Assembly: GCA_024689085.1 (NCBI GenBank)
Contig: JAILDT010000085.1
Span: 1 to 36,065, forward strand
Direction of reading: 5' to 3'
From: Clostridia bacterium
Lineage (GTDB): Bacteria > Bacillota > Clostridia > Peptostreptococcales > Anaerovoracaceae
DNA: 36,065 nucleotides
How positions within the stretch are numbered: position 1 is the first letter of the stretch; each line of letters starts with the position of its first letter. A model generated the notes under the pieces. The model worked only from the letters and a program-made list of their open reading frames with translations, ran no database searches and was not told the origin of the DNA. A program made the position numbers and the translations under genes. Positions 16,630 through 21,398 of the stretch are shown one piece after another.

Positions 16630-18366
16630 ATGATGAAGACATGTAAGAGGACAACAGCGATTCTGCTGAGCATAGTTGTTGCTTTTGCATTCGTGCTGAC
16701 AGGCTGCGGCGATGGAAAAGACATGAGCGCCGATGTATCGCAGAGCGTGGCAGGCATTGAGTACTACCACTACGATACAGCGGAATTCAATCGTCTGTGT
16801 GACGAACTGGAAGAACTGGCAGCCGGTGACAACGCAGAAAAAGTAATCAGAAAATACGACAAGCTCTACGACGAATATGTGGAACTTGAGACTCTGTACG
16901 CCGTCATTTACGTTATGTACTCTACGGACGTGAAGAACGACTACTACTCGGACGAGCAGATCTACACCTTTGATAAACTCCAGCGGTGCAGCGACAGGCT
17001 CTGCGAAGTCTGCCGTAAGATTACCGAAGGACCGTGCGCGGAGCCATTCCGGGAGCACGTGGGCAAGGACGCATTTGATTCCTTCGCCGAATACCGGGTT
17101 CTGTCAAAGCGGGAGAAGAAGCTCCTGAAAGAAGAGAAGGAACTTGTAGACGAATACTATGATGTGATCGAGGCGGCGGAGGACGCGACTTACTCCTATA
17201 ATGACGTAGACTGGAATCTCGAAATGATTTCCGGTGACAAAGGCAGCGAACTGGCCTATACGGACTATGAGGGCTATGTCGAGATCTACGATGGATTGCT
17301 CAAGATGGCCAACGACAAAGCGGGGCCGATCTACCTGAAGCTGGTGGATATCAGGACGGAGATTGCGAACCTGGCGGGCTACGACAGTTACGCGGATTAC
17401 GCCGATGAAAAGGAGTACTGCAGAGACTATTCCAGAGATGACATCGGGCAGCTCTATAAGGACGTGCGCAAAGTTTCAAAGACGTACTTCGAAAACTATT
17501 ACTCCAATTATTCGGACGAGGTGCCGCTCCCTAAAATGTCCGTTAAAAAGCTTCTGAACGACCTGCTAAAATACAGCAATCAGGTCGATGAGCTGGCAGG
17601 CCAGTCCGCCCAGCAGCTGGTCGACGAGAAGCTAATTACGATCGGCGACGAAAAAAACCGTCAGGACGGCGCCTTTACGACTTATGTCTACAATGCCAAC
17701 TGCCCGTTCATCTCACAGTCGCTGGATGGGAAACGCGACTTCATTGTGCTGTCCCACGAGTTCGGCCATTTTGTCGAATACAATAATGAAAAGCAGAACA
17801 ATATTCTAACAGACAGCGACAACATCGACCTGGCAGAGATCGCATCCAACGGTCTGGAAGGGCTCATGACCCACTTCTATGATGAGATTTACAAAGACCG
17901 CGCTGACCAGGCCAGAAAAGCCGCCGTCAGTGAACTCCTCGAGAACGTAATCGACGGCTGCGTTGAAGACGAATTCCAGCGCGGTGTCTATGATAATCCG
18001 GACATGACCCTGGACGAGATCAACAAACTCTACGCAGAGACCTACGCCAAGTACAACACCTGGGCAGAAGGTGATTCCGGGTATTCCTGGGTCTTCATTC
18101 CACACAACTTCGAGTCACCGATGTACTACATCAGTTACTCCGTCAGCGCCCTTGCGGCACTGCAGATCTGGAACCAGAGCAACACGAACTTCGACAAGGC
18201 CGTGGGAATGTGGGAAAAGTTCATCGAAGAAGGCACCTATAATCAGACCTACCTTGACGTCGTCGGCAAATGCGGACTGCTGAAGTTCACTGAAGAAGGC
18301 GCCGTCAACAAGATATGCAAACCAGCGCTTGACGCGACCAGCGTCGAAATGGATTTTGAATTATGA
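16630..18366 (+). CDS. M3-like (oligoendopeptidase) zinc metallopeptidase lipoprotein
   Basis: Lipobox LTGC; HExxH motif in VLSHEFGHFVEYNN with downstream EIASNGLE; M3-like C-terminal (SYSVSALAALQIWNQ). Confidence 0.85.
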   Translation: MMKTCKRTTAILLSIVVAFAFVLTGCGDGKDMSADVSQSVAGIEYYHYDTAEFNRLCDELEELAAGDNAEKVIRKYDKLYDEYVELETLYAVIYVMYSTDVKNDYYSDEQIYTFDKLQRCSDRLCEVCRKITEGPCAEPFREHVGKDAFDSFAEYRVLSKREKKLLKEEKELVDEYYDVIEAAEDATYSYNDVDWNLEMISGDKGSELAYTDYEGYVEIYDGLLKMANDKAGPIYLKLVDIRTEIANLAGYDSYADYADEKEYCRDYSRDDIGQLYKDVRKVSKTYFENYYSNYSDEVPLPKMSVKKLLNDLLKYSNQVDELAGQSAQQLVDEKLITIGDEKNRQDGAFTTYVYNANCPFISQSLDGKRDFIVLSHEFGHFVEYNNEKQNNILTDSDNIDLAEIASNGLEGLMTHFYDEIYKDRADQARKAAVSELLENVIDGCVEDEFQRGVYDNPDMTLDEINKLYAETYAKYNTWAEGDSGYSWVFIPHNFESPMYYISYSVSALAALQIWNQSNTNFDKAVGMWEKFIEEGTYNQTYLDVVGKCGLLKFTEEGAVNKICKPALDATSVEMDFEL

Positions 18367-19625
18367 GTTTAAGAATCAACATCATACGGGGCCAGAACCA
18401 GATTGGAGGCTCCATCATAGAAGTGTACACCGACAGCACGCGCATCATCCTCGACGCGGGAGCGAATCTGGGCGAAAGCAAGCTGCGTACATTCGTGCCC
18501 GATGTGGACGGCCTGTTCGACGGAGCGCCTGCTTATGATGCGGTCTTCGTTTCCCATTATCACGATGACCACATGGGACTGCTCAAATACGTGGTCCCGG
18601 GGATTCCTATCTACATGGGCCGCGACGCATACAGCGTCGCCTGCGCTTTGAGAGAATACAAAGGCAAGACCCTCGGCTTCTCGCCGGTGTTCATGGAGGC
18701 GGGCGTGCCTGTTACTGTGGGGGACATTTCTCTCACGCCGGTACTCTGCGACCACTCAGCTTATGGAACCTTCATGTTCCTGATACGGGCCTGCGGTAAG
18801 ACCGTTCTGTACTCGGCGGATTTCCGTTCGACGGGGCGCATGGATTTCAGCGCCCTGCTGGAGGAGTTGCCGGAAGTGGACGGGCTGCTTGTGGAGGGCA
18901 CCACTCTGTCCCGCGGGCTGGATTTTCACGAGCCAAGCGAACAGGAACTCGAGGATTTTGCTGCTGAAACGCTAGAGGGGCATAAAGGTCCCGCCATCGT
19001 CTATCTCTCCGCCCAGAACGTCGATCGAATCGTCACGGCCTACAATGCAGCGCAGCGTTCGGGCAGACGTTTCATCATGGATGAACTGACCGCGCTGGTT
19101 GCGGAAGCAGCCGGACTTCAGCTCGACGGGTTCGTGCTGCGCGCTTCCCACTCCTTAGCGGACCTCGGCGAGGTCGTCGCGGCCAGCGCAGGAGGAACCG
19201 GCACATCCGACCACATCAGCCTGACAGGACACCGCCGCACTGCAAAAGCATACCCGGCCATTACGGCCCGCAAGGCCTTCGCGTCTCCTGATTTCATGCT
19301 TTGCCTGACGCCGCAGAGTCTGATCAATTTCCAGAAAGTCATTCAGCGGACGTCCTTCCGGGACGGCGTGCTCTTCATTGCACGCCGGGAAAATGCCATA
19401 CTAAAACCGGCTACATCAGCCTTCATTTCATTCATGAAATCCATCGATGCTGAAGTGCCGGTTCTTCACACGAGCGGTCACGCCGACAGCGGTACCATTG
19501 ACCGCCTGATTCGCGACGTACGTCCGTCCGTCCTCATTCCGGTTCACACGGAACTGGCCGAGTGGTTCTCCCGTTACGAGGACGAATGCCTGGTTGTCTA
19601 TGACTGCCGGGATTATGAGATTTAA
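18363..19625 (+). CDS. MBL-fold metallo-hydrolase with RNA-metabolising-type C-terminus
   Basis: HxHxDH in VSHYHDDHMGLL; C-terminal HTSGHADSGTIDRLIRDVRPSVLIPVHTE; ATGA overlap with the upstream peptidase gene. Confidence 0.85.
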   Translation: MSLRINIIRGQNQIGGSIIEVYTDSTRIILDAGANLGESKLRTFVPDVDGLFDGAPAYDAVFVSHYHDDHMGLLKYVVPGIPIYMGRDAYSVACALREYKGKTLGFSPVFMEAGVPVTVGDISLTPVLCDHSAYGTFMFLIRACGKTVLYSADFRSTGRMDFSALLEELPEVDGLLVEGTTLSRGLDFHEPSEQELEDFAAETLEGHKGPAIVYLSAQNVDRIVTAYNAAQRSGRRFIMDELTALVAEAAGLQLDGFVLRASHSLADLGEVVAASAGGTGTSDHISLTGHRRTAKAYPAITARKAFASPDFMLCLTPQSLINFQKVIQRTSFRDGVLFIARRENAILKPATSAFISFMKSIDAEVPVLHTSGHADSGTIDRLIRDVRPSVLIPVHTELAEWFSRYEDECLVVYDCRDYEI

Positions 19626-20782
19626 AGTTCCTGCCTGAGCCTCCTGACCAGCCGGTCTTTTGCGAGGTCTCCCAATTCAATGACTTCGATATTCAATTCC
19701 GCCGCTCTCATTCTCATGAGGGCGCGATTTCTGTTGGCAGGAGCCGAAGTGACGATAATGGCTCTGGAGCGTCTGCCCCCGAATCGGTCTCTCAGGACAG
19801 CAAGCTCATTCAGCGCTTCCGTCCGGATATCGCTGGTCTTGCAGCTGATGAACAGCGGCTCGATGCCCTGGACAGCCACAACATCAATTTCATTTGTAAC
19901 GGCGTTCCGCTGGGTCGATCCGCCTTCCCAGTTTACGACAGCGCTGAGCACCACGTCATCGAAACACCCAGCTTCCAGGCAGGCGCTGAACACCTGCAGT
20001 TCCAGCACGGAACCGATATCGCGAAGCCAGAATCTGACCATTTCATCAGGGAATTCGAAACGGATTCTGTCCATATCGATCTGGAGATTTCTAATCAGCC
20101 CAACGCCAGCCAGCTCCCGCAGCATATCTTCGTCTGCCGTCACCCTGCCGTGGTCGACCTTGGCCGTCTTTGGTCCGTCCGCGTTCAGTATTCCAGGTTC
20201 CGATGAGGAAATGGCCTGATAATAACCGATCTGTCTGCGCCAGATCCTGCGATACTTGCGGAAGACCGCAAACAGGGCGTCGATCTGCGGCAGTCGGTTT
20301 TTCAGATCTTCATTGTCCTCTCTTCCCGGCAGCAGCGTCCCGCCGGCCATGAGAAAACAGGACCTTGCGTCAAGAATCACGTTGCACGGCAGACTTCTGG
20401 CGAATGGCGCGTTCTGAATCTCGAAAAAAGAGTTCTTCTTGTGGCTGTAGGTGAACACCGGCGTATCGCCGCAGGCCACCCCAGCTGCGAAGAGGGACGC
20501 GTCCGTTCCACCCGAAATATCGATGGCACAGTCCTCGTACTCCTCAAGAATCTTCCGCAGTTGTTTCTCAACTTTGGCCGCGTCAAGCAGACTCACCGGA
20601 ACAGTGGTCACTTTTACTGGGCAGCCTCTGTAAGCGAAGTACTTATTCAGAGACTCCCTGAGCACCTTGTCCGAAACGACTTCCGGCGGGCACAGCATGA
20701 TCGTCTCTTCTGGCCGGAACATCTCCGTGCCGAGCACATTTTCCAATGGTCTTTCGTCGTATAATTCAATCAGTGTTTTCAT
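19622..20782 (-). CDS. DUF1887 / Card1 (Can2)-like protein: CARF-like N-terminus plus PD-(D/E)XK nuclease-like C-terminus
   Basis: N-terminal Rossmann-like region with DISGGTDASLFAAG (cf. conserved TGGT-type motif of DUF1887 CARF domains); C-terminal NEIDVVAVQGIEPLFISCKTSDIRTEALNELAVLRDRFGGRRSRAIIVTSAP matches the NEIDV...FISCK nuclease core of DUF1887. Confidence 0.82.
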   Translation of the reverse strand: MKTLIELYDERPLENVLGTEMFRPEETIMLCPPEVVSDKVLRESLNKYFAYRGCPVKVTTVPVSLLDAAKVEKQLRKILEEYEDCAIDISGGTDASLFAAGVACGDTPVFTYSHKKNSFFEIQNAPFARSLPCNVILDARSCFLMAGGTLLPGREDNEDLKNRLPQIDALFAVFRKYRRIWRRQIGYYQAISSSEPGILNADGPKTAKVDHGRVTADEDMLRELAGVGLIRNLQIDMDRIRFEFPDEMVRFWLRDIGSVLELQVFSACLEAGCFDDVVLSAVVNWEGGSTQRNAVTNEIDVVAVQGIEPLFISCKTSDIRTEALNELAVLRDRFGGRRSRAIIVTSAPANRNRALMRMRAAELNIEVIELGDLAKDRLVRRLRQEL

Positions 20783-20858: not shown

Positions 20859-21398
20859 TTAGAAGTATCTCTTCAGCAGTCCTTCAAATGCCTTGCCGTG
20901 TCTTGCTTCGTCACGAGCCATTTCGTGAACTGTGTCATGGATTGCATCCAGTCCCAGTTCCTTCGCTCTCTTAGCCAGAGCCGTCTTGCCAGCTGTTGCA
21001 CCGTTTTCTGCATCAACTCTCATCTCGAGGTTCTTCTTAGTTGAGTCTGTGACGACTTCGCCCAACAGCTCGGCGAACTTCGCTGCGTGCTCTGCTTCTT
21101 CGTAAGCAGCCTTCTCCCAGTAGAGGCCGATCTCAGGATAGCCTTCTCTGTGAGCGACTCTAGCCATTGCCAGATACATGCCTACCTCTGAGCATTCGCC
21201 GTTGAAGTTGTCTCTGAGGCCCTGTACGATCTCTTCGTCAACGCCCTGCGCTACGCCTACTACGTGCTCAGCAGCCCATTCTCTTTCGCCTTCTTCTACC
21301 TTGTTAAATTTCTCTGCCGGAACACCGCACTGAGGGCACTTTGCCGGTGGCGTATCGCCTTCATGAGTATATCCGCATACTGAACATGTCCACTTCAT
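20859..21398 (-). CDS. Reverse rubrerythrin (N-terminal rubredoxin domain plus diiron ferritin-like domain)
   Basis: Rubredoxin-type [27 protein letters not shown] at the N-terminus; diiron motifs [44 protein letters not shown]. Confidence 0.95.

What the first reader, a model, noticed from the sequence alone, without database searches (positions are those of the whole stretch)
19622..20782. Orphan Card1/Can2-like (DUF1887) CARF-nuclease with no CRISPR locus in view
The protein has the two-part layout of DUF1887: a Rossmann/CARF-like N-terminus with DISGGTDASLFAAG and a PD-(D/E)XK core NEIDVVAVQGIEPLFISCKT. Characterised Card1/Can2 proteins are cyclic-oligoadenylate-activated nucleases of type III CRISPR. 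Here there is no Cas10, Csm/Cmr or CRISPR array in 36 kb; neighbours are a peptidase, an MBL-fold hydrolase and rubrerythrin. The ligand motif (GGTDAS) and the FISCK variant of the nuclease motif suggest a non-CRISPR branch with a different ligand or trigger (inference). This is my strongest candidate for an undescribed signalling or defence component.
Basis: partly seen in the sequence, partly recalled or inferred. Interest (0 to 1): 0.72.

Follow-up and report, generated by a model that had tools for sequence, protein, structure and literature searches.

The report
Solitary non-CRISPR Card1-like sensor nuclease
A gut Clostridia genome carries a lone relative of the CRISPR nucleases Card1/Can2 whose sensor pocket has lost the residues that bind the usual CRISPR alarm molecule and whose nuclease centre appears rebuilt around a moved glutamate, so it is probably a switchable nuclease answering to a different, unknown signal.

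Summary
The ORF and its two-domain layout are real. It is a full-length DUF1887/CARF4-PD-(D/E)XK protein (PADLOC 5e-43; AlphaFold model pLDDT 93, best PDB match the orphan VC1899). It is a true orphan: the genome has no Cas10 or Cas1, and none of 24 genomes of its family that carry the gene has a convincing Cas10, a CD-NTase or mCpol. Orphan DUF1887 proteins were known already (VC1899).

Two features look new. (1) In the clostridial branch the catalytic Glu of E-C-K is Ser, and a Glu appears on the next helix (E326), where characterised members have Lys: 117 of 127 sequences are Ser/Glu, 9 are Glu/Lys or Glu/His. This is the PD-xxK-E layout of NgoMIV/Cfr10I restriction enzymes. (2) The cA4-contacting Lys (SthCan2 K99) is lost in all 27 orphans compared, but kept in 8 of 10 Cas10-linked relatives. 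A sublineage of the same acidic-pocket branch sits in three type III-B loci, two with CorA (the SAM-AMP receptor family), suggesting a non-cA4 ligand.

Best reading: ligand-gated solitary nuclease, ligand unknown. New variant of a known kind.

The parts
19622..20782 (-). solitary DUF1887 / CARF4-PD-(D/E)XK protein, 386 aa
20333..20782 (-). N-terminal CARF (Rossmann) domain, about residues 1-150
   Evidence: AlphaFold secondary structure; Foldseek to VC1899, Can2, Card1 and to CARF domains of Cam1 and Csa3
20501..20521 (-). ligand loop D88-I-S-G-G-T-D94; D94 replaces the cA4-contacting Lys (SthCan2 K99)
   Evidence: alignment with SthCan2 and Card1; contact residues from PMC7969007 and PMC12825302
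19622..20047 (-). C-terminal PD-(D/E)XK nuclease domain, about residues 246-386 (PF09002 match 19664-20014)
19883..19894 (-). N297-E298-I299-D300: metal-binding acidic pair, equivalent to SthCan2 E276/D278
   Evidence: E298 in 126 of 127 and D300 in 127 of 127 sequences
19838..19846 (-). S313-C314-K315: the catalytic Glu of the E-x-K half-motif is Ser, the Lys is kept
   Evidence: S in 118 and E in 9 of 127; K in 126 of 127
19805..19807 (-). E326 on helix 321-333: candidate relocated catalytic Glu (K-X10-E)
   Evidence: E326 pairs with S313 in 117 of 118 S-type sequences; K or H in all 9 E-type sequences; helix assignment
18363..19625 (+). convergent MBL-fold (beta-CASP/RNase J-like) gene overlapping the nuclease gene by 4 bases; neighbour in 10 close species, not elsewhere; not claimed as a partner
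20859..21398 (-). rubrerythrin, upstream neighbour; replaced by another gene in sister species

Best explanation
It is a solitary (orphan) member of the DUF1887/Can2-Card1 class: a CARF sensor domain fused to a PD-(D/E)XK nuclease, probably a homodimer. It most likely works like Can2: a small ligand binds between the two CARF domains, brings the two nuclease domains together and switches on metal-dependent cutting of nucleic acid. The ligand is probably not cA4, because the conserved cA4-contacting Lys is replaced by Asp and the genome has no Cas10 to make it. Cutting would use E298, D300, K315 and a Glu moved onto the following helix (E326) instead of the usual Glu of E-x-K. Shown here: fold, family, orphan state, residue changes and their co-variation, purifying selection. 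Inferred: homodimer, ligand gating, catalytic activity, role of E326, and any role in defence or stress.
For: Family and fold: (VC1899 TM 0.75/0.77, Can2 0.70/0.78, full length). Orphan state: no Cas10, Cas1, CD-NTase or mCpol in G000; none of the 24 CARF-positive family genomes has a convincing Cas10, a CD-NTase or mCpol; 104 flanking loci (1.39 Mb) hold no match to 12 Cmr/Cas10/Cas6/CorA queries and no convincing array, while two CRISPR-linked controls show candidate arrays beside the gene. Active-site swap: 117 S/E, 8 E/K, 1 E/H, 1 S/K. Precedent: CCGG-family restriction enzymes use PDX21-53KX12-13E (PMC4652773) and PD-xxK-E active sites are documented (PMC551604); the ExK Glu (E323) is essential in Cdn1 (PMC12825302); Can1's nuclease domain resembles AgeI and NgoMIV (PMC6981274). 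Pocket: Lys at the K99 position in 8 of 10 Cas10-linked and 0 of 27 orphan proteins. Selection: dN/dS about 0.08.
Against: No biochemical data. L069 has Ser and Lys together, so the swap is not absolute. The Lys/Cas10 association rests on few independent events (3 independent pairs, sign test p 0.5 or more). VC1899 itself showed only weak RNase activity not regulated by cA4 (PMC7969007), so an orphan may not be gated at all.
Confidence: 0.6

Rival explanations
1. Remote effector of a type III CRISPR system: it still answers cA4 (or another cyclic oligoadenylate) made by a Cas10 that the draft assembly missed or that related strains carry.
For: The family is a type III effector family; at least 12 of 19 other PF09002-positive genomes of the phylum sample have Cas10; the assembly is incomplete.
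Against: 0 of 24 family genomes with the gene have a convincing Cas10 (about 1.3 expected by chance, so no positive link); no Cas1 in the genome; the residues conserved for cA4 binding in all described Can2 clades (Lys and Tyr; PMC12825302) are D94 and T here.
Confidence: 0.1
2. Catalytically dead or non-nuclease protein: the Glu-to-Ser change inactivated the nuclease and the protein is kept as a nucleotide-binding regulator.
For: E323A abolishes activity in Cdn1 (PMC12825302); the orphan VC1899 is almost inactive in vitro (PMC7969007).
Against: E298, D300 and K315 stay essentially invariant (126, 127 and 126 of 127) and Ser is coupled to a new Glu on the helix in 117 of 118 S-type proteins, as in working restriction enzymes; S-C-K members also sit inside type III-B operons.
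Confidence: 0.17
3. Housekeeping nuclease for DNA repair or RNA metabolism, not defence.
For: In one genus of the family the gene lies in a dnaX-ybaB-recR-dtd gene run and in another beside a ThiF-family (TcdA-like) gene; neighbours are ordinary host genes; no copy on phages, plasmids or viral contigs.
Against: Patchy distribution (24 of 249 genomes, 10 of 92 genera) and neighbours that differ between almost all relatives even at 60-70% identity suit a mobile accessory gene better than a conserved pathway.
Confidence: 0.13

Closest known systems
VC1899 (Vibrio cholerae, PDB 1XMX), orphan DUF1887
   Same: Best structural match over the full length; CARF plus PD-(D/E)XK; no type III system; cA4-binding residues not conserved (PMC7969007).
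   Different: VC1899 keeps the canonical E-C-K and a helix Lys, and has Arg at the K99 position; the window protein has S-C-K plus E326 and Asp at that position.
Can2 / Card1 (SthCan2 7BDV, TsuCard1 6WXW), type III CRISPR ancillary nucleases
   Same: Same fold and domain order; the NE(I/L)D pair and the Lys of xCK are conserved.
   Different: Those are cA4-activated and CRISPR-linked, with an E-C-K active site and the Lys/Tyr cA4 contacts; all of these differ here.
CCGG-family restriction enzymes (NgoMIV, Cfr10I, BsaWI)
   Same: Same idea of active site: PD ... xxK ... E with the acidic residue moved to a helix (PMC551604, PMC4652773).
   Different: Sequence-specific, not CARF-gated, no CARF domain; no direct homology is claimed beyond the superfamily.
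Acidic-pocket CARF nucleases in type III-B loci, two of them CorA-linked (L114, L217, L218)
   Same: Same CARF-nuclease branch in the tree (99/96 support), the same S-C-K plus helix Glu and an acidic TGGEE/TGGGE loop.
   Different: Encoded with cas10, cmr genes and (two of three) CorA; the window protein has no such partner.

Membership tests
DUF1887 / CARF4-PD-(D/E)XK (Can2/Card1 protein family) | N-terminal CARF Rossmann domain | tested here: met
   PADLOC full-length CARF4 models; AlphaFold/Foldseek match to CARF proteins
DUF1887 / CARF4-PD-(D/E)XK (Can2/Card1 protein family) | C-terminal Card1-type PD-(D/E)XK endonuclease domain | tested here: met
   PF09002 38.0 bits against cut-off 26.4
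DUF1887 / CARF4-PD-(D/E)XK (Can2/Card1 protein family) | canonical E-x-K catalytic Glu (seen in the characterised members; not required by the Pfam/PADLOC family definition) | tested here: not met
   Ser at 313 with a candidate replacement E326; shared with CRISPR-linked S-C-K members, so treated as a variant inside the family
Can2/Card1 as type III CRISPR ancillary effector | encoded in or with a Cas10-containing type III locus | tested here: not met
Can2/Card1 as type III CRISPR ancillary effector | conserved cA4-contact residues (SthCan2 S19, T42, K99, Y118) | tested here: not met
   window has D, P, D, T at the aligned positions
Can2/Card1 as type III CRISPR ancillary effector | cA4-activated DNase/RNase activity | not testable with these tools
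   needs purified protein
CBASS or Panoptes effector | linked CD-NTase or mCpol synthase | tested here: not met
   no SMODS or mCpol match in this genome or in the other 23 CARF-positive family genomes
PD-xxK-E active-site class (NgoMIV/Cfr10I-like) | acidic residue moved from xxK strand to following helix | tested here: met
   by sequence and predicted secondary structure: S313-C-K315, E326 on helix 321-333
PD-xxK-E active-site class (NgoMIV/Cfr10I-like) | moved carboxylate lies in the metal site | not testable with these tools

The most novel reading that the evidence does not exclude
The acidic-pocket branch of DUF1887 is gated by a non-cOA nucleotide. In the type III-B loci with CorA this would be the messenger CorA answers (SAM-AMP is the candidate), making it a CARF nuclease for a linear, SAM-derived signal. 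The solitary members, including this one, would be receptors for a related nucleotide made by the host or by infecting phages, and would cut with a rebuilt PD-xxK-E centre.
Probability: 0.17. Interest if true: 0.78.

Novelty: new variant of a known kind. Interest (0 to 1): 0.47.

Why it matters
CARF domains are treated as cyclic-oligoadenylate sensors. A widespread, selected branch without the cOA-binding residues and without a found synthase in the genome means another ligand, or none, a question that VC1899 left open. The three type III-B relatives give a concrete place to look (two share an operon with CorA). The Ser/Glu swap predicts which residue to mutate and suggests that many clostridial DUF1887 proteins would be wrongly called dead by an E-x-K search.

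Tried and rejected
S-C-K as a non-CRISPR marker: rejected, it is in type III-B operons too. MBL neighbour as functional partner: rejected for now, adjacent only in 10 close species, and close copies are absent from the same-genus genomes that lack the nuclease. Mobile-element carriage: no relative of the window protein in phages, plasmids or viral contigs. CD-NTase and mCpol: none in carriers. Alignments A1 and A2 were too diverse for the genome scan, A3 worked. A wider PF09002 sample by class held only 4 genomes. The Lys-Cas10 association is significant by Fisher (1.2e-6) but not with phylogenetic pairs, so it is reported as a pattern only. In the first tree L211 was read on the wrong strand; corrected.

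Full report
Observation. The ORF at 19622-20782 (-) encodes an intact 386-aa protein. Pfam finds only the Card1 endonuclease domain (PF09002, 38.0 bits, cut-off 26.4). PADLOC models of CARF4-PD-(D/E)XK proteins match it end to end (5e-43). A profile of 16 relatives finds VC1899 (7e-21), SthCan2 (6e-20), Card1 (2e-11) and a Dysgonamonadaceae Can2 (9e-10) in the PDB. An AlphaFold model from 49 aligned relatives has mean pLDDT 93 and pTM 0.89, and its best solved match is VC1899 (TM 0.75/0.77), then Can2, Cdn1 and Card1. So the fold part of the finding is secure.

Orphan state. In the same assembly there is no Cas10, Cas1, SMODS-type CD-NTase or mCpol. In 249 genomes of the family, 24 carry a relative of the protein, in 10 of 92 genera. 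None of these 24 has a Cas10 match; about 13 of the 249 have a convincing Cas10, so about 1.3 would be expected by chance. This shows no link, not avoidance. The same holds for CD-NTases (9 of 249, none in carriers). Flanks of 104 orphan loci (1.39 Mb) gave no hit to 12 Cas10, Cmr, Cas6 and CorA queries and only two weak repeat runs that I did not resolve (L156, L176), while the CRISPR-linked controls L217 and L218 showed candidate arrays beside the gene. By contrast, at least 12 of 19 other PF09002-positive genomes of the phylum sample have Cas10, several within a few kilobases.

Distribution and neighbours. The 80 kept are nearly all metagenome-assembled genomes labelled as Clostridia, Clostridiales or Lachnospiraceae, many from ruminant gut. 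Their neighbours are ordinary host genes and differ between almost all relatives, even at 60-70% identity. Only the window's own species group shares the MBL-fold and peptidase genes (10 loci). In one genus of the family the gene closes a dnaX-ybaB-recR-dtd gene run, in another it lies by a ThiF-family gene. I read this as a gene that travels alone; no copy was found on phages, plasmids or viral contigs. It is under strong purifying selection (median dN/dS 0.08).

Active site. Characterised members use E276/D278 (SthCan2) and the E-x-K pair (E302/K304 in TsuCan2) (PMC7969007); in Cdn1, E308A, D310A and E323A each abolish activity (PMC12825302). In the window protein the first pair is E298/D300, the Lys is K315, and the Glu of E-x-K is S313. 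Over 127 sequences, S313 and position 326 combine as S/E 117 times, E/K 8, E/H 1 and S/K 1. Position 326 lies on the helix after the S-C-K strand (helix 321-333). The Glu has thus apparently moved from strand to helix, where characterised members have Lys. The same layout, PDX21-53KX12-13E, is established for CCGG-family restriction enzymes (PMC4652773; PMC551604), and Can1's nuclease domain was reported to resemble AgeI and NgoMIV (PMC6981274). The spacing here is K-X10-E, and about X14 in another genus. This is inference until the geometry and a mutant are measured. I found no report of it in the papers held, but two key papers could not be opened. The 127 rows are related and not independent; the E-type rows number only 9.

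The variant is not CRISPR-free. S-C-K proteins directly follow cmr6 in two III-B operons (L105, L111) and lie by cas6 and cmr4 in a third (L102).

Sensor pocket. cA4 contacts conserved across all described Can2 clades include a Lys and a Tyr (K104/Y124 in Cdn1, PMC12825302; K99/Y118 in SthCan2, PMC7969007). The aligned residues in the window protein are D94 and T. The K99 position is Lys in 8 of 10 Cas10-linked relatives and in none of 27 orphans (Fisher 1.2e-6). Relatedness limits this: only 3 independent pairs exist on supported branches. VC1899 likewise lost its cA4 contacts and was not regulated by cA4 (PMC7969007).

A bridge to type III-B. In a tree of 55 proteins the acidic-pocket branch (38 rows, support 99/96) contains three members in type III-B loci: L114 and L217 in CARF-CorA-Cmr1-Cas10-Cmr3 operons and L218 beside Cas6, Cas10 and Cmr genes. 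CorA is the SAM-AMP receptor in the system studied (PMC10600005, PMC11229360), and effectors sharing a locus typically share an activator (PMC11229360), although that paper also warns that other CorA families may answer other molecules. The Cas10 palm motifs are GGED in L114 and GGDD in L217 and L218. This makes a non-cOA ligand plausible, SAM-AMP among them, but it is an inference from gene order.

Mechanism. Shown: fold, orphan state, residue swaps, selection. Inferred: dimerisation through CARF, ligand-triggered closure of the nuclease pair as in Can2 and Cdn1, metal-dependent cleavage with E326. I put this reading at 0.6 against a dead-nuclease reading (0.17), a housekeeping nuclease (0.13) and a remote type III effector (0.1). 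Verdict: a new variant of a known kind, with an orphan status already precedented by VC1899.

Noticed in passing
L114 1638-7387; L217 4241-10006; L218 2792-9800: Acidic-pocket DUF1887 nucleases encoded with type III-B Cas10 and, in L114 and L217, with a CorA-like protein as adjacent gene; possible effector pair sharing one messenger.
   Followed up: partly
L115 2654-7177: A 1507-aa protein that begins with a kinase-like region (my reading of the sequence) and ends in a Card1-type nuclease domain (E-C-K type).
   Followed up: no
L207 3642-5435: DUF1887 CARF protein (about 597 aa) on a Caballeronia plasmid inside a FtsK, VWA, PP2C phosphatase, Ser/Thr kinase and AAA gene cassette, without CRISPR genes in the stretch read.
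   Followed up: no
L104 6843-9062: 739-aa protein with two CARF-nuclease-like halves (Can1-like duplication), with S-C-K plus helix Glu in its C-terminal half.
   Followed up: partly
L076 5284-9939: Orphan CARF nuclease as a member of a dnaX-ybaB-recR-dtd gene run, repeated in five genomes of one genus.
   Followed up: partly
L069 7587-8789: Single exception to the Ser/Glu pairing: S-C-K with Lys at the helix position; may be inactive or use a neighbouring acidic residue.
   Followed up: no
window 18363-19625: MBL-fold gene overlaps the nuclease gene tail to tail by 4 bases; only remote homologues in same-genus genomes that lack the nuclease.
   Followed up: partly
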